Source of the DNA: an uncultured Clostridia bacterium | GTDB lineage: Bacteria > Bacillota > Clostridia > Oscillospirales > Oscillospiraceae | DNA length: 34,080 nt | Reading direction: 5' to 3' | NCBI GenBank assembly: GCA_947365965.1 | Contig: CANAZG010000024.1 | Coordinates: 1 to 34,080, forward strand | Shown: piece after piece, positions 19,618-33,970 of the stretch | How the letters are laid out: every line of letters begins with the position of its first letter | How positions within the stretch are numbered: the stretch's first letter is position 1 | Made by a program: the position numbers and the translations under genes | Notes under the pieces: generated by a model | Seen by the model: only the letters and a program-made list of their open reading frames with translations | Databases searched by the model: none | Told to the model about the DNA's origin: nothing

Positions 19618-21747
19618 TTACATCAGCGGCTCCAGATTCAGCACCGGGTGGCCCTTCTCGGTGATGAAGTTCATCAGCTCCTCGGGATCGGAGGTAATGG
19701 TCTCGTCGCCGATCATGTCGCAGAAATTCTCAATCCCCAGCAGCTCCTTGGCCGTGGCGTTGAGCCGGGCGGACACGTCGTCCTTAAGCTCCTTGGGCAT
19801 CCAGACAATCCGGGCAATGCCGCCCTCGGCGGAGGCGAACTTCTTGCTGCCGATGAAATGGCGGCCGTGGCCCATGAAGCCCGGGGTCTGCACGCCGCCG
19901 CCGGTCATGCTGGCCAGCTCGCCGAAGGTCATGCCCGTGGGGGTCATGCCCTTGAACTCCCGGTTGCAGATCACCAGACCGTTGCTGATGGGCTCGATGC
20001 CGCAGATGCACTCGAAGCAGCCGCAGCTGGTCATGGGGTCCTCCATGATGGAGTACAGGCTCACGTGCTCCACCGCGCCCTGGGTGGCCGCATGGACCAT
20101 CCGGTCCACGTCCGGGTAGTAGCCCTTCTTCTCGTCCGTGCAGCCCTCCTTGCTGATGGGCTGGCAGGGGCCGGCGTCGTTGAGCTCCTTGGTGGCCTTG
20201 GCGTCCAGCCAGCTCACCGCGCCGCACAGGCCCAGCCGCTCCGGCGTGACCACGCAGCAGTGGCTGGGGGCGAAGGACTGGCAGAGAATGCAGGTGTAGA
20301 ACTGGTCCACGCTCTCGTCGGTCATGGAACTGAGCCTGTCGTCCCGGGCGCTGTAGGCGGGCATGGCCTCCTCGCTGAGGATCCGCGCCGCCTTCTCCGG
20401 ATCTGTGACCAGGGTGACCTGGCACTTGTCCACCACCGCGTCAAACTCGTCCATAATCATATTGTAGAGCACCTCGCCGAAGTGCTTCATCCGCAGGCCC
20501 TTGTCGTAGGCGTCGTTGGACACCCGGATGCGGAACTGGTTGCGCTGGCCGGTGTGCATCACGCCCTCCATGTAGTTGAACCAGGCGTGGATCTTCCGCT
20601 CGATGACGGACTCGAAATCCTTCTGCATCTTCGCGCCGGCCACCTCGATGTAGGTTGCCAGGGCGTACTCCGTCTCGCCGCTATCGATGTCCGGGCCGTC
20701 CACGGTGATCTTGTGGTCCTCGATCTCGTCCATGGACCGGGTGGTCACCAGCTCGCAGGTGGTGTTCTTGCTGGACCAGAACTCCACCTTCATGTCCGCC
20801 TTGCGGATGATCTCCCCCTCAAAGGCGGCGGCGAAAGCCACGGGAATGGGCAGCTCCTTCACCTTGATCTTGATATTGCGCAGGGCCAGGGAGCGCTTGA
20901 CGGTCTCCTCGTGATTGGTGACCGCCTCCAGTGCGCCGGGGACCTGGAGATCACCGATATCCTGGTCCACGATCACCGGGAAGCCCAGGGCGATAGCCCC
21001 AGCGCCGGCGGAGACCACCACCTCGCTGAGAGCCCCGAAGGTGTTGACAAAGGCGGGCACCCGCTCCTTGGTGTACTTGAGAAGGCCGGCCAGATCCCCG
21101 GGCTGGATGTTGCCGAAGATGAGGGCCGCGCGGATAGCCACGGTGACCACGTGGATGACGCTGGTAACGTCGTGGCCCAGGGGCACCACCCGCAGCTCCA
21201 GGCCCATCTTCACGCCCTCGCCCAGGGCCTGCTCAATGCAGTCCCCGATCATGAAGGTGAGAATGCCCTTGGACTGGTAGTCCTTCACCACCTTGGCTAC
21301 GTCGGCGGCGCTGTCCGCCTTGCCGATGACCACGGCCACGCCGGGGATGTCGCCGGTGACCAGGGGCACGCCCAAGGAGCGGATCACGGGGTCAGGCACA
21401 AAGCCGATGCCGGAGTCCTCAGCGTAGGGGGCCGCGCCGCCCACGTACTTCAGTCCCTCGATGATCTCCGCGCCCACGGCGGTGGCAAGGCCTGCGTTCA
21501 GAGCCTGGGCGATGTCGTCCTGGCCGGTAATCAGGCTCTTGAGTACGTCTACGCAGGCGGGCAGATCCCCCAGCGTCTTCACCTTCACGCCTGTGGCGGC
21601 GTAGATGGTGGGGAAGAAGTAGGCGGTGTCGGGAAAGGCAACAGGGGTGTCAGCGCCGTGCTTGGCAATGGCATCCTTGACGGCCCCCTCGGTCAGGCCC
21701 GCCACAGCGTTGGAACCGGCATAGATCAGATCAGTTAACGCGCTCAT
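19618..21747 (-). CDS. acsB: acetyl-CoA synthase (CODH/ACS beta subunit)
   Basis: 709 residues from ATG 21747 (AGGAGGTTG upstream); earlier in-frame codons are not protein-like. It joins CO, a methyl group from the corrinoid protein and CoA into acetyl-CoA, the last step of the Wood-Ljungdahl pathway. The A-cluster ligands are all present: Cys486, Cys489, Cys498 and Cys508 for the [4Fe-4S] part, and the CGC motif 575-577 for the distal nickel. Their spacings match those I recall for the Moorella enzyme (506/509/518/528/595/597) at a constant offset of 20. Length is near the bacterial type (about 729). Unusually, no CO dehydrogenase, corrinoid protein or methyltransferase gene is nearby. It diverges from citrate synthase. 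Confidence 0.95.
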   Translation of the reverse strand: MSALTDLIYAGSNAVAGLTEGAVKDAIAKHGADTPVAFPDTAYFFPTIYAATGVKVKTLGDLPACVDVLKSLITGQDDIAQALNAGLATAVGAEIIEGLKYVGGAAPYAEDSGIGFVPDPVIRSLGVPLVTGDIPGVAVVIGKADSAADVAKVVKDYQSKGILTFMIGDCIEQALGEGVKMGLELRVVPLGHDVTSVIHVVTVAIRAALIFGNIQPGDLAGLLKYTKERVPAFVNTFGALSEVVVSAGAGAIALGFPVIVDQDIGDLQVPGALEAVTNHEETVKRSLALRNIKIKVKELPIPVAFAAAFEGEIIRKADMKVEFWSSKNTTCELVTTRSMDEIEDHKITVDGPDIDSGETEYALATYIEVAGAKMQKDFESVIERKIHAWFNYMEGVMHTGQRNQFRIRVSNDAYDKGLRMKHFGEVLYNMIMDEFDAVVDKCQVTLVTDPEKAARILSEEAMPAYSARDDRLSSMTDESVDQFYTCILCQSFAPSHCCVVTPERLGLCGAVSWLDAKATKELNDAGPCQPISKEGCTDEKKGYYPDVDRMVHAATQGAVEHVSLYSIMEDPMTSCGCFECICGIEPISNGLVICNREFKGMTPTGMTFGELASMTGGGVQTPGFMGHGRHFIGSKKFASAEGGIARIVWMPKELKDDVSARLNATAKELLGIENFCDMIGDETITSDPEELMNFITEKGHPVLNLEPLM

Positions 21748-22045
21748 TAAAACAACCTCCTGTAAAAAATTGAGGGGAAACAGCTGCCTTTTAATATACC
21801 AAAAAAAGCGTCCCTTGTATAGCCTTTTTCCGCGATTGGGCAGAAATTTTTCCATCCCCTCCCGGGGGATGCCAGGGAGCGAAAATGAGACCGCACCTCC
21901 TCCTTTTTGCATAACAGGCGGACTTCTCTATGCAGGCCGTCTGATAGTTTAGAAAAAATTCGGGAGATTTTACCTTGAAAATGAAAGTTATATGTGATAT
22001 ACTTGCAAAATAGAAGTGCCGCCCAGGGGAAAGGAGTATGCCGCT
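21748..22045. other. intergenic region between acsB and citrate synthase
   Basis: 298 bases between divergent genes. It contains the citrate synthase promoter (21975-22003). On minus, an extended -10-like GGTATATT lies near 21796-21803 with no good -35, which may be the acsB promoter. I see no gene, no riboswitch and no clear operator here. Confidence 0.5.
21975..22003 (+). promoter_or_regulatory. promoter of citrate synthase
   Basis: TTGAAA (21975-21980), 17-base spacer, TATACT (21998-22003). The expected start is ~22010, about 35 bases before the ATG. Confidence 0.75.
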
Positions 22046-23452
22046 ATGATCTGGAACGAAAATCGGGAGAACGCCTACTGCGAGATCACGCCCGCCATCA
22101 TGGCATTGAAGGAGCAGTGGGAGAAGGAGAATTTCATCGATCCCCGACTGTACCGGGAGTACAACGTCAAGCGGGGCCTGCGGGACGAGGACGGCCGGGG
22201 GGTGCTCACAGGCCTGACCCGGGTGGCGGAGATCCAGTCCTACACCGTCACCGCTGACGAGCACATCCTCCCCGCCGACGGCGTGCTCTACTACCGGGGC
22301 ATCGACTGCCGGGAGATCGTGCGGGGGTCCGAGGCCCGGGGACGGTTCGCCTTTGAGGAGGCGGCGTACCTGCTCCTCTTCGGGGAGCTGCCCAGCCGGG
22401 CGCAGCTGGAGGACTTCTGCGGCCAGCTGGCCTCCTACCGCACCCTGCCCACCAACTTCTTCCGGGACATCATCATGAAGGCCCCGCCCAAGGATCTGAT
22501 GAACACCATGCAGCGGGCCATTCTCACCCTGTACTGCTACGACGACAAGGCCAACGACGTGGGGCTGGAGAACGTGCTGCGCCAGAGCCTCCAGCTGCTC
22601 AGCAACATGCCTGTGCTGGCCATCTACGCCTATCAGGCCTGGCGGTACTACGAGGGGGCCAGCCTCTTCATCCACGTGCCCCAGCCGGAGCTGTCCGCGG
22701 CGGAGAACTTCCTGTACATGCTGCGGGAGGATCGATCCTACACGGACCTGGAGGCCCGCACCCTGGACGTGGCCCTGGTGCTCCACGCAGACCACGGCGG
22801 CGGCAATAACTCCACCTTCACCAACCACGTGGTCACCTCCTCCGGCACGGACACCTATTCCGCCATCGCCGCAGCCATGGCCTCCCTGAAGGGCCCCCGC
22901 CACGGCGGAGCCAACAGCAAGGTCATGGACATGATGGCGGACATCAAGGCGCACGTGGAGGACTGGGGGGACCAGGGCGCGGTGGAGGCATACCTGACCC
23001 GGATCCTGGATAAGGAGGCCTTCGACGGCAGCGGCCTCATCTACGGCCTGGGCCACGCGGTCTACACCCGCAGCGATCCCCGATGCGAGGTGTTCCGCAG
23101 CTATGTGCAGCAGCTGGCGGCGGAGAAGGACCGGGGGGCGGATCTGTCGCTGTACGAGAGCGTGGAGCGGACCGGCAAGAGACTGCTCATGGAGCGGCGG
23201 GGCAGGAAGGCCATCTCCACCAACATCGACTTCTACAGCGGACTGGTCTACGAGATGCTGGGCCTGCCCATGGAGCTGTACACGCCTCTGTTTGCGGTGG
23301 CCCGGATCGCCGGCTGGAGCGCCCACCGGATGGAGGAGCTCAGCGCCGGCGGCAAGCTGATCCGTCCCCGGTACGAGTGCGTGGAGGCCCACCGCCCCTA
23401 TGTGCCCATGGAGGAGCGGCAGGGCGGTTTTCCTCCCCCATCCGCTGACTGA
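22046..23452 (+). CDS. citrate synthase
   Basis: 468 residues from ATG 22046, with AAGGAG at 22031 region. It condenses oxaloacetate and acetyl-CoA to citrate. The catalytic triad is visible as His286 (GPRHGGANSK), His337 (GLGHAVY) and Asp395 (NIDFYSG), plus the LHADHGGGNN segment (246-255). It is longer than the 370-430 residues usual for this enzyme, with an N-terminal extension of ~60 residues; 2-methylcitrate synthase is an alternative activity. It diverges from acsB, which makes one of its substrates, so shared regulation is possible, but there is no aconitase or isocitrate dehydrogenase in the window. A strong terminator follows. Confidence 0.9.
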   Translation: MIWNENRENAYCEITPAIMALKEQWEKENFIDPRLYREYNVKRGLRDEDGRGVLTGLTRVAEIQSYTVTADEHILPADGVLYYRGIDCREIVRGSEARGRFAFEEAAYLLLFGELPSRAQLEDFCGQLASYRTLPTNFFRDIIMKAPPKDLMNTMQRAILTLYCYDDKANDVGLENVLRQSLQLLSNMPVLAIYAYQAWRYYEGASLFIHVPQPELSAAENFLYMLREDRSYTDLEARTLDVALVLHADHGGGNNSTFTNHVVTSSGTDTYSAIAAAMASLKGPRHGGANSKVMDMMADIKAHVEDWGDQGAVEAYLTRILDKEAFDGSGLIYGLGHAVYTRSDPRCEVFRSYVQQLAAEKDRGADLSLYESVERTGKRLLMERRGRKAISTNIDFYSGLVYEMLGLPMELYTPLFAVARIAGWSAHRMEELSAGGKLIRPRYECVEAHRPYVPMEERQGGFPPPSAD

Positions 23453-23461
23453 GGAATCGAA

Positions 23462-23511
23462 AAACGCCGGGAGTGCGCATCCACAGGATGTTGTGCGCAC
23501 TCCCGGCGTTT
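23462..23511. terminator. terminator after citrate synthase
   Basis: A perfect 18-bp stem (23462-23479 with 23494-23511), 14-base loop, A-rich entry and T-rich exit. It lies between convergent genes and can act in both directions. Confidence 0.85.
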
Positions 23512-23585
23512 CTCTGCTCTTTGAGAGCCTGTTTGTTCATATGAGATAAACAGGAGATCATCGCCCTGTCAATCGTTTTTCGTTT

Positions 23586-24449
23586 TCAATTCCGCCCCTT
23601 TTCCAACCGAACAAACAGCAGAATAGAGAATACAGCCAAGAACACCATGGAAAGAGCTCCTGTCGGGTTCGGTCCCAACAGACCGTTTTTCATATCATGC
23701 GTCATACAAACAGGGAGCTCGCCTATGACATTCACAACTCCATGCATGATTGCCGCATACATACAGTTGCCTGTCTGTATTGTGATATAGGAAAACATGA
23801 TGCCCGAAACGATACACACCGCCAGCATCAGCGCCATGTTCGTGTAGGGCGCACCCCAGTTGTTCAGGCTGTAATTGAATCCGAAATAGATGAGGGGAAG
23901 ATGCGCCAGCCCCCATTCGATTCCGTTCAGCAGGACCGCCTTTCGTGCGCCATATTTTTCGATCTGAAATCCGAGGAGATACCCGCGCCAACCGATTTCC
24001 TCGCCTAATTCCAGTAATTGTACCGGCAGCATGATGCCGGCGATCACAATACAGATCAACGCAGTCACCATAGGGGATTGGACAGCCGCTCCCGCATCGG
24101 AGCCCAAAAGCAATCCATACCTGAAAACGCCGCTGTACTCATTGGGGAAAATGAGGAAATACAAAACCGCGCCCAATACAATCAATATTCCCGGCGCCAG
24201 CGCGGAAAACAACCATGCCCTTGCGTTTTTCCAAACCCTGAACGAAAGATGGAACGTCCCCTTTCTGCCTGTGACGCGCCGTGTAATAAGCGACATTACC
24301 ACAGGCAAAAACGTAAACGCAACACCTAAAATACGGTAAAACCCTCCCGTTCCGGCCGCAAGCTCAAGCGCTCCAAGCCCATAACATATAAAATAAACCA
24401 GGCCCAGATATATTCTGATCGGGCATCTGCTGCTGTTGCCCTTTTCCAT
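23586..24449 (-). CDS. CPBP-family intramembrane metalloprotease
   Basis: 287 residues with an AGGAGGG ribosome binding site. It has about eight membrane helices. The CAAX-protease/bacteriocin-processing (Abi/CPBP) motifs are intact: EExxxR at 150-155 (ELGEEIGWRGYLL), His183 in GLAHLP, and His236 with Asn240 in MHGVVN. Members cleave substrates within the membrane or confer self-immunity to bacteriocins; no bacteriocin gene is visible here. The gene is noticeably less GC-rich than its neighbours and uses different codons, which suggests recent acquisition. It lies downstream of the nucleotidyltransferase gene on the same strand. Confidence 0.88.
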   Translation of the reverse strand: MEKGNSSRCPIRIYLGLVYFICYGLGALELAAGTGGFYRILGVAFTFLPVVMSLITRRVTGRKGTFHLSFRVWKNARAWLFSALAPGILIVLGAVLYFLIFPNEYSGVFRYGLLLGSDAGAAVQSPMVTALICIVIAGIMLPVQLLELGEEIGWRGYLLGFQIEKYGARKAVLLNGIEWGLAHLPLIYFGFNYSLNNWGAPYTNMALMLAVCIVSGIMFSYITIQTGNCMYAAIMHGVVNVIGELPVCMTHDMKNGLLGPNPTGALSMVFLAVFSILLFVRLEKGRN

Positions 24450-24505
24450 TGCGCTATCCCTCCTGTTTTACCGCGCAGGGGCATTGGGGGCGCCCCGATC
24501 ATGAT

Positions 24506-24898
24506 TTATGAACGGCGGCGGGCGTCTCTCGCTTTTTCTATCAATGCAATGTCCGCGAAATCCTTTTCCCGGCCCAGCTTCCGTTTCATCCGGATCAGTC
24601 CGTCCGCGCTCACAACGGGAACGCCGCTGACGATCTCCACGGTTCCCTCGATCCAGTTTTCAAAGATCTCGATATGTTCAGAATAGGAGAATCTTCTGGT
24701 TCCGTCCCCACATCGGGCGGCGGCGCAGCCCTGTTGCTCCAGCTGATCCGCCAGGAGCGCGGTACAGCCCAGATCAACATCCTGGGTCTGCGGGCGAAAC
24801 CCGTGCAAAACCATAGCGCCGCCGGCGACAACCCAGTATTCCTCTTTGGAAAAGGGGAGGGACCGGAGAAGCTGAAGCAGAGAATATCGATCAAACAT
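24506..24898 (-). CDS. small nucleotidyltransferase-fold protein
   Basis: 130 residues from ATG 24898, with GGAGG upstream; an ATG at 24949 is an alternative start but has a less convincing N-terminus. The nucleotidyltransferase signature is VVAGGAMVLHG (23-33) followed by DVDLG with Asp40 and Asp42, the GG...DxD pattern of metal-dependent nucleotide transfer. Later, ADGLIRMKRKLGREKDFADI resembles the C-terminal helix of AbiEii/MNT-type proteins. It could be an antitoxin/toxin-type or substrate-modifying enzyme. No HEPN or AbiEi partner is adjacent. GC content is intermediate. Confidence 0.7.
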   Translation of the reverse strand: MFDRYSLLQLLRSLPFSKEEYWVVAGGAMVLHGFRPQTQDVDLGCTALLADQLEQQGCAAARCGDGTRRFSYSEHIEIFENWIEGTVEIVSGVPVVSADGLIRMKRKLGREKDFADIALIEKARDARRRS

Positions 24899-24964
24899 GC
24901 CCTGAGCACCTCCGCATCCTGCGTATTGCGGCGGGAATCGCCGTATCATGGGGTAATGGGCGCA

Positions 24965-26260
24965 TCAGCCGCCCGCCGACGATGCAGCCCGCCTCTGCGC
25001 CGCCGCGGCCCGCTTCATCTTGTAGAGCTCCTCTGTGGCAAAGCTCAGCTTGGTCACCACGTTCTGCCGGACGGGATAGCAGTAGAGGCTGTCGTTGTCT
25101 GTGGAGATGTCCACGCAGTCGTCGGGCCGCACGTAGCAGTAGTCGTACTCCACATGGAGGCCGTACATGCCCAGGGGCGGCCGGTGGATCCGGTAGGGCT
25201 GGCCCCGGTAGCTCCCCTCCACCACGAACCCCTGGTCCATGTCGTGGATGAGCCGGGCCCGGCCCAGCTTCTGGAACCGCCAGGCGTTGGGCAGGGAGTA
25301 CACCTCCACCTCGTCCTCAAAGCGGTAGCTCCCCTCCTCCAGCTGCCGCCGCACCTGCTCCCGCTCCCACTCGAACCAGTCCGGGATGTGGGAAAACTCC
25401 GTCTCCCCGGACAGGGCCCGGAGACGGCCCAGGGTGTCCATCTCCCACCGCTTGCCGCAGGCGGCGCAGGAGAGTTCGCTTCCCCGGCTCTCCATCTGGC
25501 TCTCGGTGCGGCAGCTGGGGCACTGGTAGAGGATCTTGTGGAGGCCCTCCGCCCGGAAGGGCTCGGTGATGTGGATCTGGTTCTCCGCCTGCCAGCGGTA
25601 CTCGTCGTAGGTCATGGCGGCGCGGATGATCTCCCCGATCTCCCCGGCGGACTTCTCCGCCACGTCCTGGGCCGTGAGCACCTGGGTCATGGTGGTATAT
25701 AGGGGCACCCTTCGGGGGCGGCGGTAGTTCCAGAAGGGGGTGTGGAGGTAGTTGCCGTGGTGGAGCAGCACCACCACCGGCACCCCCTGCTTCTTGGCCA
25801 GCTTGCCCAGGGAGTCCGGGAGGATGGCAGTGGTGCCCGCCGGGGAGTACCGGGCCTCCGGATACATGCACAGGATATCCCCGTACTCGTGGAGCACCTT
25901 TTTCACAGACCGCAGCAGGGTCATGTCCGTGGTGAACTTCCGCTTGCACAGGCACCCCAGCCACTCCATGATAAAGGGGCGGCGGTAGTAGCCGTCGATG
26001 GTGGCGATGTTGTTCACCCGGTGGGGCCAGGTGGCGATGGAGCAGAGCTTGAAGTCCACAAAGTGCATGTGGTTGCTCAGGAGCAGGTAGGGGGGCTCCA
26101 GGCCCTCCATGTTGATCTTCTCAATGCGGTAGTCCTGGCCCGCCATACTCAGCCCGCACAGGGCCCGCAGCACGGCGGTGAAGAGCAGCCGCTGGCGCAG
26201 AGGAGGTCTGGCGGTGTCGTAGCGCCGCAGAGCGCCGTAGTTGACGTCAATGGATTCCAT
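24965..26260 (-). CDS. glycerolipid acyltransferase with zinc ribbon
   Basis: 431 residues, with an AAGGGAG ribosome binding site. The PlsC-type acyltransferase domain spans about 30-240: NHMHFVD (63-69; His64 and Asp69 catalytic) and PEARYSPAG (134-142) for glycerol-phosphate binding. It acylates a lysophosphatidate-like acceptor at the membrane face. Two features are unusual: a zinc-ribbon with Cys247, Cys250, Cys265 and Cys268 (CPSC...CAAC), and a C-terminal domain (~280-431) of unknown function. It is divergent from the luxE-luxC-type pair, which activates and reduces fatty acyl groups, so all three may serve one lipid pathway. Confidence 0.85.
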   Translation of the reverse strand: MESIDVNYGALRRYDTARPPLRQRLLFTAVLRALCGLSMAGQDYRIEKINMEGLEPPYLLLSNHMHFVDFKLCSIATWPHRVNNIATIDGYYRRPFIMEWLGCLCKRKFTTDMTLLRSVKKVLHEYGDILCMYPEARYSPAGTTAILPDSLGKLAKKQGVPVVVLLHHGNYLHTPFWNYRRPRRVPLYTTMTQVLTAQDVAEKSAGEIGEIIRAAMTYDEYRWQAENQIHITEPFRAEGLHKILYQCPSCRTESQMESRGSELSCAACGKRWEMDTLGRLRALSGETEFSHIPDWFEWEREQVRRQLEEGSYRFEDEVEVYSLPNAWRFQKLGRARLIHDMDQGFVVEGSYRGQPYRIHRPPLGMYGLHVEYDYCYVRPDDCVDISTDNDSLYCYPVRQNVVTKLSFATEELYKMKRAAAAQRRAASSAGG

Positions 26261-26309
26261 GGTCTGTCTCCCTTCCCGTGATGCGCGCGGGGCTTGGCAT
26301 CTTTATTTC

Positions 26310-26338
26310 AGTGTATCACAGGCCAGGGGAGAAAGCAA
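26310..26338 (-). promoter_or_regulatory. promoter of the acyltransferase gene
   Basis: Minus strand: TTGCTT (26338..26333), 17-base spacer, TACACT (26315..26310), about 50 bases before the ATG at 26260. Confidence 0.5.
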
Positions 26339-26418
26339 ATGCCTTTTTCCCCGGCTTGCCGGTAAAACTTCCCTGCGTTTCCCCTGTTTGATACCGGAGC
26401 CCGCGCGCGCAAAAAACC

Positions 26419-26448
26419 TTGAACGCCGCCCCCAAAGCGTGGTATACT
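26419..26448 (+). promoter_or_regulatory. promoter of the luxE-luxC-type operon
   Basis: TTGAAC (26419-26424), 18-base spacer, TATACT (26443-26448). Its position rules out an upstream ATG start for the first gene and supports the GTG at 26482. Confidence 0.7.
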
Positions 26449-26481
26449 CTCCATAAGACAACCACGAGAGGAGGAAGCGCC

Positions 26482-27597
26482 GTGACCCTGCGCGACAAGC
26501 TGTTTCGCTGGCGGGACCCCTACGATCTGGCAGGAACGGAGGACCTCTTTGCCGCCGCCATGGCGGAAAACGCGGCCCTCCAGGCCGCCGGCTGCCCGGA
26601 TTACCGGCGGATCCTGGCCCTGAGGGGCCTGGAGGACCTGACGGGCGTATCCCCCGCCGCCCTGCCCCCCATCCCCACCCTGTATTTCAAGCGCCACGTC
26701 CTGCTGTCCGTGCCAGAGCGCAGGCTGCTGATCCGGGCCACCTCCTCGGGCACCAGCGGGTCCATGAGCCATATCGGCTTCGACGGGGCCACCCTCCGGC
26801 GGGGCGGGCACATGGTGGTGCGCATGGCCCGCCGCCACCAGCTCCTCTCCCCCCGGCCCTGCCACTACCTCATCCTGGGCTACCAGCCCCGGCGGGAGAA
26901 CCAGACCGCCTTCTCCAAGACCGGCTTCGGCTTTACCTTCTTCGCCCCCGCCCTCTCCCGTACCTACGCCCTGGTTTGGCGGGAGGGGGGCTACCGGCTG
27001 GACCTGGAGGGCCTGGAGCGAAAGCTCCTGGCCTGCGCCCGGGGCGGGGCCCCGGTGCGGACCATCGGCTTTCCCTCCTACACCTATCTCCTCCTCCGGA
27101 GGCTGGAGGAGCAGGGGGTGCGCCTGGAGCTGCCCCGGGGGTCCTTGGTCACCATGGGCGGGGGCTGGAAGCAGTTCGAGGGCCAGCAGGTGGAGAAGGC
27201 GGAGCTCTACCGCCTGGCGGAGACGGTGCTGGGGATTCCGGAGGAGGGGTGCGTGGAGTTTTTTGGCGCGGTGGAGCACCCCATTCTCTACACCACCTGC
27301 CGCGCCCACCACTTCCACATCCCGGTCTACAGCCGGGTTGTCATCCGGGACCCGGACACCCTGGAGCCCCTGCCCCCGGGCCGGCCGGGCCTTGTGAACC
27401 TGCTGACCCCCATGGCGGACAGTATGCCCATTCTCAGCGTCATGACCGACGATCTGGGGGTGCTCCACCCGGGAGGGACCTGCCCCTGCGGCATAGCCGG
27501 CCCCTGGCTGGAGATCCTGGGCCGGGCGGGGGTGCGGGACATCGTCACCTGCGCCGCCGGCGCGTCGGAATATCTGAGGGGAGGGGAGCGGGAATGA
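26482..27597 (+). CDS. LuxE-like acyl-protein synthetase
   Basis: 371 residues from GTG 26482, preceded by GAGGAGGAA; the promoter at 26419-26448 excludes upstream starts. LuxE-family proteins use ATP to activate a fatty acid and pass the acyl group to the reductase. It has the adenylate-forming-type Ser/Thr/Gly loop TSSGTSGS (87-94), then typical segments SKTGFGFTFF, GFPSYTYLLLRRL, TMGGGWKQF and EFFGAVEHP, and a C-terminal CPCG. The gene overlaps the luxC-like gene by four bases. No luciferase (luxAB) or thioesterase (luxD) gene is present, so the role is non-luminous: supplying fatty aldehyde is the best inference. Confidence 0.85.
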   Translation: MTLRDKLFRWRDPYDLAGTEDLFAAAMAENAALQAAGCPDYRRILALRGLEDLTGVSPAALPPIPTLYFKRHVLLSVPERRLLIRATSSGTSGSMSHIGFDGATLRRGGHMVVRMARRHQLLSPRPCHYLILGYQPRRENQTAFSKTGFGFTFFAPALSRTYALVWREGGYRLDLEGLERKLLACARGGAPVRTIGFPSYTYLLLRRLEEQGVRLELPRGSLVTMGGGWKQFEGQQVEKAELYRLAETVLGIPEEGCVEFFGAVEHPILYTTCRAHHFHIPVYSRVVIRDPDTLEPLPPGRPGLVNLLTPMADSMPILSVMTDDLGVLHPGGTCPCGIAGPWLEILGRAGVRDIVTCAAGASEYLRGGERE

Positions 27598-28856
27598 TTC
27601 TGGCCCACGGAAATCTCTACGAGGACAGGGAATTGGTCCCCCTGCGGGAGGGGCTGGCGGAGGCCTGCGTCCGGACCATGGCCGGCCCGCCCCTGAAGAG
27701 CGGCGTGGTGGTGGAGGCCTGCGACGAGCTGGCCCGGCGGGTGGAGCGGGGGGACTATGACCGCCTCCTCGCCCCCTTTCTGACCGGCCTTGCCATGGAC
27801 CCCGGCCAGTTTCAGGCCGCAGTGGGCCTCTTCCGCCGGGAGAGCCTCCTCTACAAGCTGGAGACGGAGCTGGGGCCGGAGCTGGTTCCCCTGCGCCGCC
27901 CGGAGGGCGGGCCCATCCGGCGGGTGCGGTATCCCCTGGGGACCCTGCTCCATATCGCCGCCGGAAACGTGGACGGCCTGCCGGCCTATAGCGTGGCGGA
28001 GGGGCTGCTGGCGGGGAATGTGAACATCCTCAAGCTGCCCTCCATGGACCAAGGCGCGTCCATTCTGCTGCTCAAAGAGCTGACGGACCTGGAGCCCCGG
28101 CTGCGGGACTATGTGTATGTCTTCGACGTGCCCTCCACGGACCTGGAGAGCCTGACCGTCTTTGCCCGGGCCGCAGACGCGGTGGTGGTCTGGGGCGGGG
28201 ACGAGGCGGTGCGGGCGGCCCGGCGGCTGGCGGACCCGGACACCCAGGTCATCTCCTGGGGCCACAAGCTCAGCTTCGCCTACGCGGTCCCGGACCCGCC
28301 GGACCGGGACCTGGAGGCCCTGGCCCGCCACGTGTGCCTCACCCGGCAGCTGCTGTGCTCCTCCTGCCAGGGGATCTTTGTGGACACGACGGACATGGGG
28401 GCTGTGGAGGCGGTGGGGGAGCGGTTTTTCGCCGCCCTCCAGGCGGAGAACCGCCGCCACCCGCCGGCGGACCTGGGCCTGCGGGCCAGGGCGGCCCTCC
28501 AAGTGTACAGCATGGAGCTGGAGGAGACCGGGCCCCGGGCGCTGCGCTCCGGCGGCGTGAGCGTGGTCATTGCCCCGGACAGCCGCCTGGAGCTGTCCCC
28601 CCTGGCGGGGAACTGCTGGGTCAAGCCCCTGCCCCGGGAGCGGATCCCGGCGGCGCTGGGGGGAAAGCGGGGATATTTGCAGACCGCAGGCCTCCTCTGT
28701 CCGCCGGAGGAGCGGGCGGCGCTGGGGGACCTGCTGGCCCGGGCGGGGGTGGTGCGGGTGACGGAGCCAGGGGAGATGAGCCGCACCGTCCCCGGGGAGG
28801 CCCACGACGGGACCTATCCCCTGCGGGCCTACAGCCGGGTGGTGGAACTGGTCTGA
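27594..28856 (+). CDS. LuxC-like acyl-CoA/acyl-protein reductase
   Basis: 420 residues; the ATG overlaps the luxE-like stop (ATGA), so the pair is translationally coupled. It has an aldehyde-dehydrogenase-like fold that reduces an acyl thioester with NADPH to fatty aldehyde. Visible elements are HIAAGNVDGLPAYS (120-133) and GNVNILKLPS for nucleotide binding, VVWGGDEAVR, SWGHKLSFAY, and the Cys255 motif LLCSSCQG, the likely acyl-accepting nucleophile. The LuxC family matches by motif and length. It pairs with the LuxE-like synthetase and faces an acyltransferase gene. What consumes the aldehyde (alcohol, wax or ether lipid) is not shown by the sequence. Confidence 0.87.
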   Translation: MILAHGNLYEDRELVPLREGLAEACVRTMAGPPLKSGVVVEACDELARRVERGDYDRLLAPFLTGLAMDPGQFQAAVGLFRRESLLYKLETELGPELVPLRRPEGGPIRRVRYPLGTLLHIAAGNVDGLPAYSVAEGLLAGNVNILKLPSMDQGASILLLKELTDLEPRLRDYVYVFDVPSTDLESLTVFARAADAVVVWGGDEAVRAARRLADPDTQVISWGHKLSFAYAVPDPPDRDLEALARHVCLTRQLLCSSCQGIFVDTTDMGAVEAVGERFFAALQAENRRHPPADLGLRARAALQVYSMELEETGPRALRSGGVSVVIAPDSRLELSPLAGNCWVKPLPRERIPAALGGKRGYLQTAGLLCPPEERAALGDLLARAGVVRVTEPGEMSRTVPGEAHDGTYPLRAYSRVVELV

Positions 28857-29058
28857 GGGGCGATGGGGCTGTGGAGCCCGCACAAATTGCCACTTGGAAA
28901 AATACATAGGGGCGAGCGCTGCTCGCCCCTATGCGGCTGCTTGGCCGCAGAATCAGTCATCAGACCCGAGACCGGATGACGGTCTCAAACACATTGCTGG
29001 AAACGCGCAGGACTTTGATGGCCGTGGGAACTGCTCCACCCTTTCCGCCTCGCTGTCC
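28857..29058. repeat. hairpin-rich intergenic segment, possible dispersed repeat
   Basis: Three successive stems: 28905-28933 (13 bp), a GCGGC/GCCGC stem near 28933-28948, and GAGACCG/CGGTCTC near 28969-28987. The part from ~28947 to 29030 reads on minus as an open stretch (AIKVLRVSSNVFETVIRSRV, then stop) that has no start codon or ribosome binding site. The arrangement looks like a REP/BIME-type or decayed mobile repeat. I see no gene. Confidence 0.45.
28905..28933 (-). terminator. terminator of the rsmI-tfoX-type operon
   Basis: A 13-bp stem (28905-28917 with 28921-28933) and 3-base loop; on minus it is followed by TATTTTTCC. It may also stop luxC-like transcripts on plus, where no U-tract follows. 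Confidence 0.7.
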
Positions 29059-29382
29059 TCACTTAGCCGCTTTCTTCCTGGGCTTTTTCTCCGGCAGGGC
29101 CGCGCACGTCACCCGGGCCAGCTCCATCAGCGTCTCCCGGTCCTCCACGTCCGGCAGCAGCATCTCCCCGCCGCCCTCGTAGGGGACGCCCCGGGGGCAG
29201 TCCGGCAGCAGGGCCTCCCCCGGCGCTGTGATCTTCACCAGCAGCCGGTCATTGCAGACGCAGGCGAAGTACTTCCCGTCGCAGTACAGGCCGTACTCCC
29301 CGAACATCCGCCGGAAGGTGATGGTCCCGGCCCCGGCCAGCTGCTCCATGACAAACTCCACATAGCTCATACTGGAGGCCAT
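29059..29382 (-). CDS. TfoX N-terminal domain protein
   Basis: 107 residues with GGAGGGG upstream. It consists of a single TfoX-N domain: RMFGEYGLYCDGKYFACVCNDRLLVK (25-50) is the typical beta-sheet signature, ended by a Lys-rich tail (EKKPRKKAAK). In gamma-proteobacteria TfoX/Sxy regulates competence with a second, C-terminal domain; the stand-alone N-domain form is common in other bacteria and its function is unknown. It starts 3 bases after the DUF3795 stop and ends the minus-strand run, so its expression is tied to that gene. Confidence 0.85.
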   Translation of the reverse strand: MASSMSYVEFVMEQLAGAGTITFRRMFGEYGLYCDGKYFACVCNDRLLVKITAPGEALLPDCPRGVPYEGGGEMLLPDVEDRETLMELARVTCAALPEKKPRKKAAK

Positions 29383-29385
29383 TGC

Positions 29386-29643
29386 TCATCCCCTCCACTT
29401 CTCGCACTGACGGATTCTCGCGCCGTTGTCCCCCTGCTGGGGATCGTAGGCAAAGTCGTGGAGCGCCTGACAGGGGAAGTCCCCGCACAGGCCGCAGTGG
29501 TCCAGCCGCCGCTCCTCACAGCAGCTCTTCACCGGGCACTTCTCCCCCCAGAAGGGCTTTTCAATGCGCACGCAGCCCTTGCACCCCATGCTCTCCCGGT
29601 ATCCGCACTGGCTGCACAGAAGCCCGCATCTCGATTCCACCAT
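29386..29643 (-). CDS. small DUF3795 cysteine-rich protein
   Basis: 85 residues from ATG 29643, preceded by AAGGGAGGA; the upstream in-frame ATG at 29703 has no ribosome binding site. It has 11 cysteines in the DUF3795 spacing (CGLLCSQCGY, CKGC, CPVKSCC, CGLCGDFPC), suggesting a metal or cluster site. It is followed by ALHDFAYDPQQGDNG. The function is unknown. It lies between the WYL regulator and the TfoX-N protein on the same strand. It is a second, distinct copy of the family found at 13843-14319. Confidence 0.8.
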   Translation of the reverse strand: MVESRCGLLCSQCGYRESMGCKGCVRIEKPFWGEKCPVKSCCEERRLDHCGLCGDFPCQALHDFAYDPQQGDNGARIRQCEKWRG

Positions 29644-29750
29644 GTCAGTCCTCCCTTTCCAGCTCCCCAAGGAGCTTGTCCCATTTTTTCTCCGGGAGGC
29701 CAAGCCGCGCCCCCCTCTGTCCTCCCAGCATACGCCGGAGAATCTGACAG

Positions 29751-30653
29751 CTATTTGTCATATTTCTCCCAAATTTTTTTGCCCAGGTCCGCCATGGCCC
29801 GCCGTGCGCCGGCTGGGGAGAGGATCTCCGCCGCGTCCCCGAAACTCAGCGCCCACCGCACCAGCTCCTCCTGGCCCGGAAAGCTCCGCTCAAAGAGCAG
29901 GCCGCCGTCCGGCTGGACCTGAAAGCTGTCCGCGCCGTACTCGTCCACCAGCCGCCAGCGGGCGGAGGGGGCGAAGCGGACCGCGGCCCGGAGCCTGCCC
30001 GGGTACACCCGCTCCGCCGGGGTGACGGGCCAGGGGGCCGGCCGGGGGGAGAAGGTCTCCTCCAGGGTCTCCAGGGAGAGCATCCGGCCCAGCTTGAAGA
30101 GCCGCCAGTCCTCCCGGTCCCGGCACCAGCCGTGGAGATACCAGCTGGACCAGCGGAACACCAGCTTGTCCGGCTCCACGGTCCGCAGGCTGTCTCCCCC
30201 TGGGGCGCAGTAGGTGAAGCGCACCAGGCGGCAGCCGGCGCAGGCGGCCTTCAGCGCCTCCAGCCGGGGGGCCAGGACAGGGCCGTACCAGGAGGCCAGA
30301 TCGATGACCACGCAGTCGTCCCCCGCCGCCGCCTCCGGCCGGGGCAGACGCTCCATCAGCCGCCGGTAGCAGCCTGTTCCGGACACGCTGTCCAGGCTTC
30401 GCAGCCCCGCCAGAATGGCCCCCCGGTCCGCGTCCGTGAGCACCGTCCGGTCCAGCGCATATCCCTCCATGATGGACACGCCGCCCCCGGCCCCCCGGGC
30501 GGTGCGCAGGGGGATGCCCGCCCGGCAAAGCCGGTCAATGTCCCGCTGGATGGTGCGCACGCTGACCTCGAAGCGGTCCGCCAGACTCCCGGCGGTGACC
30601 TGCCCCTCCCGGAGCAGCACCGCCAGGATGCCGATGAGCCTGTCGATGGTCAT
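29751..30653 (-). CDS. HTH-WYL (YafY-type) transcriptional regulator
   Basis: 300 residues. The N-terminal helix-turn-helix (about 1-60) includes GSLADRFEVSVRTIQRDIDR, the DeoR/HTH-11 recognition pattern. The middle and C-terminal WYL region includes LVRFTYCAP, EPDKLVFRWSSWYLHGWC and FKLGRML, the ligand-sensing part of the family. It probably binds DNA as a dimer in response to a nucleotide or other small ligand. It overlaps the rsmI stop by four bases (ATGA), and two small genes (DUF3795, TfoX-N) follow. Its targets are unknown; the neighbouring small genes are candidates. Confidence 0.88.
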   Translation of the reverse strand: MTIDRLIGILAVLLREGQVTAGSLADRFEVSVRTIQRDIDRLCRAGIPLRTARGAGGGVSIMEGYALDRTVLTDADRGAILAGLRSLDSVSGTGCYRRLMERLPRPEAAAGDDCVVIDLASWYGPVLAPRLEALKAACAGCRLVRFTYCAPGGDSLRTVEPDKLVFRWSSWYLHGWCRDREDWRLFKLGRMLSLETLEETFSPRPAPWPVTPAERVYPGRLRAAVRFAPSARWRLVDEYGADSFQVQPDGGLLFERSFPGQEELVRWALSFGDAAEILSPAGARRAMADLGKKIWEKYDK

Positions 30654-31480
30654 GGCGACTCCCTCTGGAGCGCCGCCTGGTATAGCTCATTGCGTCCCAG
30701 GCCGGTGGCGGCGGCCACCTGCCGCACCGCGTCCTTCATCTTCACGCCCTCCGCCCGGAGGGCCAGGACCCGGGCGGTCCCCTCCTCCAGGGACAGCCCC
30801 GCCTCCGGCTCCCCGCCGGCCAGGACGATGACGTACTCCCCCCGGGGCTCCCGGTCCCGGTAGTAATCCGATGCCTGGGCCAGGGTCAGGCGGAGGGTCT
30901 CCTCGTGGAGCTTGGTCAGCTCCCGGCACAGGGCCGCCGGCCGGTCCCCGAAGGCGGAGAGGAGATCGTCCAGGGTGGCCCGCAGGCGGTGGGGGGCCTC
31001 GTAGAAGATCATGGTCCGCTCCTCGCAGGCGAGCTTTGCCAGCCGCTCCCGCCGCTCCCCCCGGTTCACCGGCAGAAACCCCTCAAAGACGAACCGGCCT
31101 GTGGCCAGACCGCTGACCGCCAGGGCTGTGATGAGGGCGCAGCACCCGGGCACCGCCTGGACCGGCACGCCGTTGTCCGCGCACAGGCGCACCAGATCCT
31201 CTCCGGGGTCGCTGATGGCCGGGGTGCCCGCGTCGGTGACCAGGGCGCAGCTCTCCCCGGCCAGCAGCCGGGCCAGGATGGCCGGGCCGGCGGAGGCCCG
31301 GTTGTGCTGGTGGTAGCTCACCAGGGGCCTGCGCAGCGCCAAATGGTTGAGCAGCTTCATGGACACCCGGGTGTCCTCGGCGGCGATGAAGTCCGCCTCT
31401 GAGAGGACCTGGGCCGCCCGGGGGCTCAGGTCCCCCAGGTTTCCGATGGGCGTGGCTACGAGATAGAGCGTTCCGGACAT
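30650..31480 (-). CDS. rsmI: 16S rRNA (cytidine-1402 2'-O) methyltransferase
   Basis: 276 residues from ATG 31480, preceded by AAGGAGGG. It 2'-O-methylates C1402 of 16S rRNA in the P site. The tetrapyrrole-methylase fold is seen from LYLVATPIGNLGDLSPRA (5-22), AAEDTR, LVSYHQHN, LVTDAGTPAISDPG and EGFLPVNRGERRERL, all typical of RsmI/YraL. Length is typical (about 280). Its promoter at 31509-31537 points left, back to back with the MarR-family promoter, and its leader contains a TTGTTCG half-site that pairs with the MarR-side operator; shared regulation is possible but would be unusual for a rRNA modification enzyme. Confidence 0.94.
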   Translation of the reverse strand: MSGTLYLVATPIGNLGDLSPRAAQVLSEADFIAAEDTRVSMKLLNHLALRRPLVSYHQHNRASAGPAILARLLAGESCALVTDAGTPAISDPGEDLVRLCADNGVPVQAVPGCCALITALAVSGLATGRFVFEGFLPVNRGERRERLAKLACEERTMIFYEAPHRLRATLDDLLSAFGDRPAALCRELTKLHEETLRLTLAQASDYYRDREPRGEYVIVLAGGEPEAGLSLEEGTARVLALRAEGVKMKDAVRQVAAATGLGRNELYQAALQRESP

Positions 31481-31494
31481 AGGCAAATCCCTCC

Positions 31495-31595
31495 TTGTTC
31501 GATAAAAAAGTATACCACGCCTGTCTCCGGTTGGCAAGGACCGGAGCCTTGACAGGCGTGGGGAACTGTGGTATATTATGTTCAAAAACGAACAA
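31495..31595. promoter_or_regulatory. symmetrical divergent promoter and operator region
   Basis: Between rsmI (minus) and the MarR gene (plus). The minus promoter is TTGCCA/TATACT (31537..31532, 31514..31509), the plus promoter TTGACA/TATATT (31549-31554, 31572-31577), both with 17-base spacing. A dyad links them: CCACGCCTGTC (31515-31525) with GACAGGCGTGG (31551-31561), CTCCGGT with ACCGGAG inside, and TTGTTCG (31495-31501) with CGAACAA (31589-31595) outside. A TGTTC-N6-GAACA palindrome (31579-31594) covers the plus transcription start, a likely MarR operator. Confidence 0.7.
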
Positions 31596-31616
31596 TAAAA
31601 AAAGGGGGAATTCCCT

Positions 31617-32066
31617 ATGTTGCCACCTCTCTTTACCCGCTCCCGGGGCCTGGGCAAGCTCTACGGCCAGATGTTTGTCCCGGTGCTGGAGCAGTGGAAG
31701 CTGACCCAGCTGGAGGCGGACATCCTGCTGTTTCTGGCCAACAATCCGGACTACGACACGGCCCGGGACATTGTGGAGCGGCGGTACATCGCCAAGTCCC
31801 ATGTGTCCCTGGGGGTGGAGAGCCTGGCCCGGCGGGGCCTGCTGCTGCGGGCCACCCGGCCGGGCAACCGCAAGACCATCCACCTGGAGCTGACGGAGGC
31901 CGCCGGACCCATTGTGGAGGCGGGCCGGGCCGTGCAGGCCCGCTACGGACGGGCCCTGTTGGCTGGCTTTACGGACCGGGAGCGGGAGACGCTGCTGGAG
32001 CTGCTGAGCCGGGTGGCAAAAAATGTGGACGCCGCCCTGACAGCGGCGGAGGGGGGAACGCCGTGA
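31617..32066 (+). CDS. MarR-family transcriptional regulator
   Basis: 149 residues with an AAAGGGGGAA ribosome binding site. It has the winged-helix layout: LTQLEADILLFLANNP then ARDIVERRYIAKSHVSLGVESLARRGLLLRA as recognition helices, and the wing RPGNRKTIHLELTEAA, followed by a dimerisation helix. It is probably a repressor that responds to a small ligand. The palindrome TGTTC-N6-GAACA at its own transcription start suggests autorepression. Its stop overlaps the GTG start of the TauE/SafE exporter by four bases, so the exporter is the probable regulated function. Confidence 0.88.
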   Translation: MLPPLFTRSRGLGKLYGQMFVPVLEQWKLTQLEADILLFLANNPDYDTARDIVERRYIAKSHVSLGVESLARRGLLLRATRPGNRKTIHLELTEAAGPIVEAGRAVQARYGRALLAGFTDRERETLLELLSRVAKNVDAALTAAEGGTP

Positions 32067-32839
32067 GCTTTCTTTATGTTGTCGTGATTTGCTTTTTTGC
32101 CGGCATGGGGGCCGGACTGGGCACCGGCTTTGCCGGCATGAGCGCCGCCGCCGTCATCACCCCCATGCTGGTCACCTTTCTCCACGTGCCCCCCTATCAG
32201 GCGGTGGGCATCGCCCTGGCCAGCGACGTGCTGGCCAGCGCCGCCAGCGCGTGGACCTACGGCAGAAACAAAAACCTGGATGTGAAAAACGGTCTGGTGA
32301 TGATGGGGACCGTGCTGGTATTTACCCTGGCGGGCAGCTGGGCGTCCAGTCTGGTACCCTCCGGGACCATGGGGAGTTTCTCCGTGTTCATGACCCTGCT
32401 GCTGGGGGTGAAATTTTTGGTCAAGCCCATGATGACCACCCGGGAGGCCATGGAGGCGGCGTCCCCCCGGAGGCGGCTGATCCAGTCCGTAGTCTGGGGG
32501 GCCATGATCGGCTTCATCTGCGGATTTATCGGCGCCGGCGGCGGCATGATGATGCTCCTGGTACTGACCAGCGTGCTGGGGTATGAGCTGAAAACCGCCG
32601 TGGGCACCAGTGTGTTCATCATGGCCTTCACCGCCCTCACCGGCGCGGTGAGCCACTTTGCCATCGGCGGCGTGGCAGACTGGAGGGCGCTGGGGCTGTG
32701 TGTGGCCTTCACCCTGCTGTGGGCCCAGATCGCGGCCCGGTTCGCTAACAAAAGCGCACCAGAGGTCCTCAACCGGGCCACCGGGGCGGTGCTGGTGGCC
32801 CTGGGCGCGGTAATCCTGGGGGTCAACTATCTGACGTGA
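32063..32839 (+). CDS. TauE/SafE-family membrane exporter
   Basis: 258 residues from GTG 32063, which overlaps the MarR stop (GTGA) and follows GGAGGGGGG. It has about eight membrane helices. The paired TauE/SafE repeats are visible: AGMGAGLGTGFAGMSAAAVITPML near the N-terminus and GFIGAGGGMMMLLVL in the second half, with NKNLDVKNG in the loop. The family exports sulfite, sulfoacetate or related anions; the ion cannot be assigned here. Coupling to a MarR regulator suggests induction by the exported compound. No sulfur-metabolism gene is adjacent. Confidence 0.88.
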   Translation: MSFLYVVVICFFAGMGAGLGTGFAGMSAAAVITPMLVTFLHVPPYQAVGIALASDVLASAASAWTYGRNKNLDVKNGLVMMGTVLVFTLAGSWASSLVPSGTMGSFSVFMTLLLGVKFLVKPMMTTREAMEAASPRRRLIQSVVWGAMIGFICGFIGAGGGMMMLLVLTSVLGYELKTAVGTSVFIMAFTALTGAVSHFAIGGVADWRALGLCVAFTLLWAQIAARFANKSAPEVLNRATGAVLVALGAVILGVNYLT

Positions 32840-32852
32840 GGGGGGCGAGGCC

Positions 32853-33596
32853 ATGAGGAACGGGCTCTATATCAGCGCGGCTGCCCTCACTCGGGAGATC
32901 GAGGAGGACGGCTGGCTGCTGGAGCTCCCCGCCGTGGCGGGGCTGCGTGAGCGGCCCCTGGTCTTTCACAGGCCGGTGACCTTCTTTGTGGGGGAGAACG
33001 GCACAGGCAAGTCCACCCTCCTGGAGGCCATTGCGGCGGCCTGGGGGTTTAACCCGGAGGGGGGCACCCGGAACTTCACCTTCTCCACCAGACTCTCCCA
33101 CTCCGCCCTCTGGAGGAGCCTGACGCTGACGAAGCGGGGATTTGCCCGGGACGGGTTCTTTCTCCGGGCGGAGAGCTTCTACAACGTGGCCACCAGTATT
33201 GAGCAGCTGGACAGCCAGCCGGCCTTCAGCCCCCCTGTCATTGACAGCTACGGCGGCGTGTCCCTCCACCGCCAGTCCCACGGGGAGAGCTTCCTGGCCC
33301 TGGTGCAGAACCGATTCGGCGGACATGGGCTGTATCTGCTGGACGAGCCGGAGGCGGCCCTGTCCCCCACCCGGCAGCTGAGCCTGCTGGCGCTACTGGA
33401 CCAGCTGGTGCGGGAGGACAGCCAGTTTATCATCGCCACCCACTCGCCTATTCTGATGGCCCTCCCCGGGGCGGAGATCCTGCAGTTCAGCCAGGATGGG
33501 GTGGAGCCGGTATCCTACAGGGACACGGAGCACTACCAGATCACCCGCCGGTTCCTGGAGGACCCGGACCGGATGCTACGGTATCTGCTGGAGTGA
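32853..33596 (+). CDS. AAA-type ATPase with SMC-like ABC motifs
   Basis: 247 residues, with GAGGGGGGCGAGG upstream. The predicted single ATPase domain has Walker A GENGTGKST (47-55), an SHGES signature (141-145), Walker B LYLLDEPE (159-166) and an ATHSP switch (His196). The motif order is that of RecF/Rad50/OLD-like chromosomal ATPases without a coiled coil or nuclease domain. Members of this short group (DUF/ATP-binding 'AAA_21'-like) are often unassigned. It starts 13 bases after the exporter and shares its promoter. Any link to transport or to DNA repair is inference. Confidence 0.83.
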   Translation: MRNGLYISAAALTREIEEDGWLLELPAVAGLRERPLVFHRPVTFFVGENGTGKSTLLEAIAAAWGFNPEGGTRNFTFSTRLSHSALWRSLTLTKRGFARDGFFLRAESFYNVATSIEQLDSQPAFSPPVIDSYGGVSLHRQSHGESFLALVQNRFGGHGLYLLDEPEAALSPTRQLSLLALLDQLVREDSQFIIATHSPILMALPGAEILQFSQDGVEPVSYRDTEHYQITRRFLEDPDRMLRYLLE

Positions 33597-33645
33597 GCGG
33601 CGTATGAAGGCGTATGAAAATGATTGACGCTTCTTTGACGGACAG

Positions 33646-33685
33646 AAATAAGCGCCGCCCGGCATTTGCCGGGCGGCGCTTATTT
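33646..33685. terminator. bidirectional terminator between the ATPase and secG
   Basis: A perfect 18-bp stem (33646-33663 with 33668-33685) and a 4-base loop between convergent genes. The AAATAA/TTATTT base gives an A-run entering and T-run leaving in both directions. Confidence 0.88.
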
Positions 33686-33687
33686 GC

Positions 33688-33918: not shown

Positions 33919-33970
33919 GATCGGATTACCTCCAGAGTGATGGCGGCTGATTCCGCCCCATAGGTATTCT

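What the first reader, a model, noticed from the sequence alone, without database searches (positions are those of the whole stretch)
24965..28856. Non-luminous fatty-acid reductase (luxE-luxC type) facing an acyltransferase with a zinc ribbon
A coupled LuxE-like synthetase and LuxC-like reductase should turn a fatty acid into a fatty aldehyde. With no luciferase genes, and a PlsC-type acyltransferase with extra domains on the opposite strand behind a shared intergenic promoter region, this looks like a lipid pathway to aldehyde-, alcohol- or ether-linked lipids in an anaerobe. I know of no described system of this make-up.
Basis: partly seen in the sequence, partly recalled or inferred. Interest (0 to 1): 0.75.

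Follow-up and report, generated by a model that had tools for sequence, protein, structure and literature searches.

The report
Stand-alone acid-to-aldehyde reductase gene pair
A probable gut bacterium with no light-making genes found carries a two-gene enzyme related to the one that makes aldehyde for light in glowing bacteria; the pair recurs in many related bacteria, and the acyltransferase gene beside it looks like a chance neighbour.

Summary
The three genes are real. A LuxE-type acyl-protein synthetase (26482-27597, +) and a LuxC-type acyl reductase (27594-28856, +) overlap by four bases. A PlsC-like acyltransferase with an invariant Cys4 motif (24965-26260, -) faces them. No luciferase-family gene was found in the 76.6%-complete genome. 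The proposed three-gene lipid system is not supported: luxE adjoins luxC in 80 of 80 related loci, the acyltransferase in none; within genus and family the two occur independently (Fisher p 1.0 and 0.74), and in six other genomes with both they lie on different contigs. The pair forms a deep, patchy clade of Bacillota and Mycoplasmatota with one Chloroflexota plasmid, and mostly has no constant neighbour. Catalytic-type residues are kept: LuxC Cys255, LuxE SSGTxG loop and C-terminal Cys. LuxE also has an invariant Cys/His plus CxC motif, shared in part with PaaK ligases and absent from the solved LuxE. Most likely it is a self-contained ATP- and NAD(P)H-dependent carboxylic-acid reductase that makes an aldehyde; whether the acid is fatty, short or aromatic is open. 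New variant of a known kind; no paper on the clade appeared in the rows listed by eight searches.

The parts
26482..27597 (+). luxE-type acyl-protein synthetase (AMP-forming); GTG start, 371 aa; SSGTSG loop; C273, H276, H279, C334, C336 and acyl-type Cys C357
   Evidence: PF04443 E 1.7e-39; 7xc6_E (LuxE) E 4.1e-19, profile 1.4e-37; invariant residues; model pLDDT 89
27594..28856 (+). luxC-type acyl-thioester reductase, 420 aa, catalytic-type C255 in CSSCQ
   Evidence: PF05893 E 1.5e-54; 7xc6_A E 4.2e-13; C255 in 76 of 76 rows
26419..26448 (+). promoter-like site for luxEC (TTGAAC-18-TATACT, TG before second hexamer)
   Evidence: consensus scan of 26150-26600, 1 found vs 0.1 expected; not evidence of function by itself
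24965..26260 (-). PlsC-like acyltransferase with Cys4 zinc-ribbon-type motif (residues 247-268) and C-terminal domain; neighbour, judged not part of the system
   Evidence: PF01553 in 30 of 32 members, invariant HX4D and CxxC...CxxC; unlinked in relatives

Best explanation
luxE-luxC is a self-contained two-gene carboxylic-acid reductase. LuxE activates a free acid with ATP to an acyl-adenylate and takes the acyl group on its C-terminal Cys357. The acyl group passes to LuxC Cys255 and is reduced with NAD(P)H to an aldehyde. Shown by sequence: both enzymes, their conserved catalytic-type residues, constant pairing in the loci examined, and overlapping reading frames. Inferred: the reaction, from the luminous LuxC-LuxE complex (recalled). 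Inferred weakly: a medium- or long-chain fatty acid as substrate, and an alcohol or lipid-bound aldehyde as end product through general enzymes elsewhere in the genome. The acyltransferase opposite is a chance neighbour.
Against: No substrate was shown. NCBIfam luminous equivalog models score far below cut-off (65 of 550 and 48 of 750 bits). The closest solved folds to the LuxE model are ligases of small, mostly aromatic acids. No LuxD-type gene was found, but no control rang either. C357 lies in the low-confidence tail of the model. The clade is patchy: 12 of 200 family genomes, so it is dispensable.
Confidence: 0.72

Rival explanations
1. Same reaction, but on a short-chain, branched or aromatic acid rather than a fatty acid: a small-acid detoxifying or electron-sink reductase.
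For: LuxE of this clade keeps Cys/His plus CxC residues (C273, H279, C334, C336), of which the CxC aligns with the PaaK-type ligase 4r1l (KCPCG) and is absent from 7xc6_E; best fold matches include phenylacetate, salicylate and aminohydroxybenzoate ligases; related Streptomyces and Salmonella-plasmid cassettes fuse or pair LuxC with PaaK-like ligases and a GNAT.
Against: Overall sequence is closest to LuxE, not PaaK (E 1.4e-37 vs 1.7e-8); LuxC relatives with known substrate reduce fatty acyl groups (recalled). A shared fold shows no substrate.
Confidence: 0.3
2. One reading: acyltransferase and luxEC form one lipid pathway to aldehyde-, alcohol- or ether-linked lipids.
For: Divergent neighbours with a 221-bp gap in this genome; both kinds of enzyme handle acyl groups.
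Against: 0 of 80 luxEC loci have the acyltransferase, 54 of them with 3 kb or more on both sides; 3 of 7 luxC-bearing genus genomes lack it and 11 of 18 luxC-free ones have it (many of these genomes are incomplete); in six other genomes with both, none lies upstream of luxE; the 10 genus acyltransferase loci compared share little but that gene.
Confidence: 0.06
3. The pair feeds aldehyde into plasmalogens, or replaces the PlsA/PlsR route.
For: A review reports that long-chain aldehydes, but not alcohols, are used for bacterial plasmalogens (PMC9702350, passages). Three closely related Anaeroplasma-type loci have a short-chain dehydrogenase directly upstream of luxE.
Against: DUF2229, taken here from recall as a proxy for PlsA, occurs in 10 of 12 luxC+ and 133 of 188 luxC- family genomes (p 0.51) and in 38 of 50 genomes of luxEC loci (50 of 80 sent): neither linked nor exclusive. 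The proxy is loose.
Confidence: 0.15
4. The pair runs backwards, oxidising aldehydes to acids with recovery of ATP.
For: LuxC relatives match the aldehyde-dehydrogenase family weakly, under its cut-off.
Against: Luminous relatives run towards the aldehyde (recalled); no recurring aldehyde-producing neighbour among the genes scanned.
Confidence: 0.05

Closest known systems
Fatty-acid reductase LuxC-LuxE (PDB 7xc6), part of luminous luxCDABE (luminous origin recalled)
   Same: Same two families, catalytic-type Cys residues aligned
   Different: No luciferase family found in the genome and no LuxD found (the latter search uninformative); luxE-luxC pair alone; far below NCBIfam luminous equivalog cut-offs; extra invariant Cys/His plus CxC motif in LuxE
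LuxE-LuxC of Aeromonas polar-flagella glycosylation islands (PMC7874193, passages)
   Same: luxE plus luxC outside a light system
   Different: There they sit with ACP, 3-oxoacyl-ACP reductase, AMP synthetase and glycosyltransferase genes; here the pair stands alone
Other LuxE-like loci outside light systems: Riemerella anatipestifer AS87_03730 (PMC4772473) and Mycobacterium marinum mel2 (PMC1793995)
   Same: Listings mention acyl-protein synthetase or LuxE similarity (title and start of abstract only)
   Different: Not compared in sequence here
acyl-protein synthetase / acyl-CoA reductase pair on Chloroflexota plasmid CP069395.1
   Same: Same clade in the tree, same order and 4-base overlap; annotated by family name only
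   Different: Different phylum and neighbours
Phenylacetate-CoA ligase family (PaaK; 2y27, 4r1l)
   Different: Higher sequence similarity to LuxE; ends in a LuxE-type Cys and is encoded with a reductase
PlsC-like acyltransferases (PF01553)
   Same: HX4D and PEA motifs of the neighbour gene
   Different: Zinc-ribbon-type motif and C-terminal domain; not part of the luxEC unit

Membership tests
LuxC acyl reductase (PF05893) | Profile match over the curated cut-off | tested here: met
   185.9 bits, cut-off 21
LuxC acyl reductase (PF05893) | Catalytic-type cysteine | tested here: met
   C255 aligned with a 7xc6_A Cys; 76 of 76 rows. That this Cys is the catalytic one is recalled
LuxE acyl-protein synthetase (PF04443) | Profile match and C-terminal acyl-accepting Cys | tested here: met
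   136.3 bits, cut-off 24.9; C357 aligned with a 7xc6_E Cys; 80 of 80 rows. Its role is recalled
Luminous LuxC/LuxE equivalogs (NCBIfam) | Score over equivalog cut-off | tested here: not met
   65.2 of 550 and 48.1 of 750 bits
lux bioluminescence system | Luciferase luxAB | tested here: not met
   PF00296: no match in own genome, control rings in 10 of 14; genome 76.6% complete
lux fatty-acid reductase complex (LuxCDE) | LuxD thioesterase | tested here: inconclusive
   PF02273: no match, but no control genome rang
lux fatty-acid reductase complex (LuxCDE) | Reduction of long-chain fatty acid with ATP and NADPH | not testable with these tools
   needs enzyme assay
PlsC-type acyltransferase (neighbour gene) | HX4D motif and PF01553 match | tested here: met
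   H64/D69 in 32 of 32; PF01553 at E 0.01 or better in 30 of 32 members; the window protein alone is below the curated cut-off, 19.6 vs 23
Three-gene acyltransferase-luxE-luxC system | Conserved linkage in relatives | tested here: not met
   0 of 80 loci; 6 of 6 other genomes with both have them on different contigs, none upstream of luxE
PaaK-like metal site in LuxE | Zinc bound by Cys/His/CxC | not testable with these tools
   Residues invariant in 57 of 57; metal not shown, role recalled

The most novel reading that the evidence does not exclude
A mobile, self-contained acid reductase of anaerobes: a deep LuxE-LuxC clade with a metal-type Cys/His/CxC site in LuxE, passed between Bacillota, Mycoplasmatota and Chloroflexota, that lets gut bacteria living without oxygen turn free acids directly into aldehydes and so opens a CoA-independent route to fatty alcohols or aldehyde-derived membrane lipids.
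Probability: 0.25. Interest if true: 0.65.

Novelty: new variant of a known kind. Interest (0 to 1): 0.4.

Why it matters
If the pair is active, an enzyme type known from light organs has a second life in gut and rumen bacteria, where the origin of aldehydes and of the lipids made from them is only partly explained. It also offers a compact two-protein reductase of free carboxylic acids. Some carriers are named strains whose record titles carry no MAG label (for example Ruminococcus sp. zg-924, L095), so the question can probably be tested in culture.

Tried and rejected
Three-gene lipid system: rejected on linkage and co-occurrence. Common regulator: FabT-, FapR- and Rex-like operators (patterns recalled) upstream of luxE in 81 sequences were on the whole no better than mononucleotide shuffles; two Rex-like sites with 2 and 3 mismatches are a slight excess. 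Riboswitch or other RNA in 22000-34080: none at gathering threshold. Virus carriage: no relative in viral contigs with this single-protein query, which finds close relatives only; the single 'phage' record (MT835565.1) has gyrase-like and MATE-like genes around luxEC and reads as bacterial chromosome (gene names by eye). Plasmids: 37 records match, all under 60% identity; I looked at 5 of the 37. Anti-phage role: no PADLOC match for the window's three proteins. Plasmalogen link through DUF2229: no association. Structure of the acyltransferase from one sequence: failed, pLDDT 39.9, not searched further; its profile gives only weak PDB matches, among them 1-acylglycerol-3-phosphate acyltransferase 5kym at E 0.068. 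7xc6_E is not among the 50 rows shown by either fold search, which says nothing for or against kinship. Literature: eight searches on luxE/luxC terms listed no paper on a clostridial or gut LuxE-LuxC pair; one search (luxC, luxE, plasmalogen) held none; searches held more papers (26, 13 and 2,696) than the 20, 12 and 12 listed, so absence is shown for the listed rows only, and only open-licence PMC papers are searchable. Searches were on plasmalogens and on PaaK zinc sites; the latter gave no support or denial that I read. The mobility claim rests on tree shape and patchiness alone (quick tree with long-branch and composition warnings); no AU test was run. Of the 8 phylum genomes with PF05893, three whose loci I put in the tree (L143-L145) fall in the outgroup, so the window's clade is rare at species level across the phylum.
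Full report
WHAT IS THERE. On the plus strand lie a luxE-type gene (GTG 26482, stop 27597) and a luxC-type gene (ATG 27594, stop 28856) that overlap as ATGA. Facing them on the minus strand, across 221 bp, is a 431-aa PlsC-like protein (24965-26260). Pfam: LuxE 136 bits, LuxC 186 bits, acyltransferase 19.6 bits against a cut-off of 23. NCBIfam's luminous LuxE and LuxC equivalog models are matched only far below their cut-offs. PDB entry 7xc6 is the nearest solved relative of both by sequence (LuxC chain E 4.2e-13, LuxE chain E 4.1e-19). The weak acyltransferase call becomes sound with relatives: 30 of 32 aligned members match PF01553 (best 4.3e-10), and HX4D plus four Cys of a zinc-ribbon-type motif are invariant in 32 of 32 (window plus 31 of 38 relatives).

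WHOSE GENOME. The window lies in a 3.39-Mb draft genome of 230 contigs, 76.6% complete. A same-genus match (G200, 7871-9133) agrees in coordinates with L055, 'Candidatus Pelethomonas intestinigallinarum' (7868-9133), so the organism is most likely a gut Oscillospiraceae of that genus (inference). PF05893 has one match in the genome. The bacterial luciferase family PF00296 has none, with a working control.

IS THE THREE-GENE LAYOUT REAL BIOLOGY? Not on this evidence. (1) Of 80 luxC loci kept from named bacterial genomes (80 of 137 confirmed), luxE adjoins luxC in 80 of 80: 46 with the 4-base overlap, 23 with another gap of 15 bp or less, 9 at 16-100 bp and 2 beyond 100 bp. The acyltransferase is found in 0 of 80 by tblastn at 1e-10; 54 of the 80 loci have 3 kb or more on both sides. 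(2) In 200 genomes of the family, luxC occurs in 12 and the acyltransferase, distant subfamily included, in 54, both in 4 including the window's (Fisher p 0.74). (3) In 25 genomes of the genus, luxC occurs in 7, the acyltransferase in 15, both in 4 including the window's (p 1.0). Many of these genomes are incomplete. (4) In the six other genomes with both (G075, G151, G173, G206, G208, G209) they lie on different contigs, and the 2.5-7 kb read upstream of luxE in each of the six holds no acyltransferase. (5) The acyltransferase itself has no fixed neighbours. In 10 genus loci fetched and the window (18001-34080), blastn hits over 200 bp are the gene itself, apart from one closely related pair (L161, L162), secG in L158 and the window, and one 266-bp hit. 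By tblastn, L157 also has nagA, a sugar-kinase-like gene and an epimerase-like gene beside the acyltransferase that the window holds some 8-12 kb away from it, and L163 has a 38% WYL-type match.

NEIGHBOURS OF THE PAIR. I picked 70 upstream and 63 downstream neighbours, sent 56 and 52 to Pfam, and no family matched more than 3 of 56 or 4 of 52. In high-GC loci my ORF picking is noisy. Closely related loci do share neighbours. The exception worth keeping is a short-chain dehydrogenase directly upstream of luxE in three closely related Anaeroplasma-type loci (L067, L071, L073). The other genes there read as housekeeping by eye.

CATALYTIC RESIDUES. LuxC C255 is invariant (76 of 76 rows: window plus 75 of 80 loci) and aligns with a Cys of 7xc6_A. 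LuxE SSGTxG residues and C357 (358 in P0002 numbering, which carries one extra residue in front) are invariant in 80 of 80 rows and 57 of 57; C357 aligns with a Cys of 7xc6_E. LuxE also holds invariant H266, C273, H276, H279, C334 and C336. The CxC aligns with the KCPCG of the PaaK-type ligase 4r1l and is absent in 7xc6_E. Chloroflexota, Streptomyces and Salmonella-plasmid LuxE share the Cys/CxC pattern and the Priestia one does not. A zinc site is my inference from recall; no metal was tested.

TREE AND SPREAD. In a quick tree of 84 LuxC rows the window sits in a 78-row clade (SH-aLRT 100, branch 2.66 changes per column) apart from the other LuxC used as outgroup. By record titles the clade holds Clostridia, Bacilli, Erysipelotrichia, Mycoplasmatota in two separate parts, and a Chloroflexota plasmid. 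The program warns of long branches and of odd composition in several rows, the window's included. The clade is broad but patchy: 7 of 25 genus and 12 of 200 family genomes. Over the phylum PF05893 was found in 8 of 398 genomes, the window's included, and three of those (L143-L145) fall in the outgroup. Horizontal spread is likely but was not tested formally.

HOW IT PROBABLY WORKS. Shown: two enzymes of the luminous acid-reductase families, side by side in every locus examined, with catalytic-type residues kept. Inferred from established knowledge of LuxC-LuxE (recalled): acid + ATP gives acyl-AMP on LuxE, then acyl-Cys on LuxE, then acyl-Cys on LuxC, then aldehyde with NAD(P)H. Inferred weakly: the acid is a fatty acid, and the aldehyde is passed to general alcohol dehydrogenases (PF00465 is present) or used in lipids. 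A review states that bacteria use long-chain aldehydes, but not alcohols, for plasmalogens (PMC9702350, passages). Yet DUF2229, my recalled and loose proxy for the plasmalogen synthase, is neither linked to luxC (10 of 12 vs 133 of 188, p 0.51) nor exclusive of it (38 of 50 genomes of luxEC loci, 50 of 80 sent).

KNOWN OR NEW. The families are known, and a public record already names such genes 'acyl-protein synthetase' and 'acyl-CoA reductase' (CP069395.1). luxE-luxC outside light systems occur in Aeromonas flagella-glycosylation islands (PMC7874193, passages), in a quite different gene setting. Eight literature searches on luxE/luxC terms listed no description of the stand-alone pair; some held more papers than were listed. 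I rate it a new variant of a known kind: a real and conserved enzyme pair for which I found no study, but not the three-gene lipid system that was proposed.

Noticed in passing
L153 5656-11414 (Salmonella plasmid CP054717.1) and L152 3857-11298 (Streptomyces plasmid NZ_CP108162.1): A shared cassette: LuxE, a LuxC fused to an AMP-binding (PaaK-like) domain (802 and 853 aa), a second PaaK-like ligase and a GNAT acetyltransferase, plus MFS in Streptomyces; same genes in distant hosts.
   Followed up: partly
L154 (MT835565.1): Record labelled 'Bacteriophage sp.' (unverified) reads as bacterial chromosome (gyrase-like and MATE-like genes by eye) with a luxEC pair.
   Followed up: partly
window 19618-21912: acetyl-CoA synthase (CODH/ACS alpha/beta, 999 bits) beside a citrate synthase; a CO dehydrogenase catalytic subunit lies on another contig, C92.
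   Followed up: partly
window 22016-23452: Citrate synthase of the PRK14032 subfamily, divergent from the acetyl-CoA synthase gene.
   Followed up: no
L156-L165: Within one genus the acyltransferase gene is 77-88% identical in DNA but sits among different neighbours in nearly every genome compared.
   Followed up: partly
window 1993-6162: Three consecutive genes that read like a molybdenum hydroxylase (xanthine or aldehyde dehydrogenase type: large, FAD and 2Fe-2S subunits), with one short ORF between; by eye, not searched.
   Followed up: no
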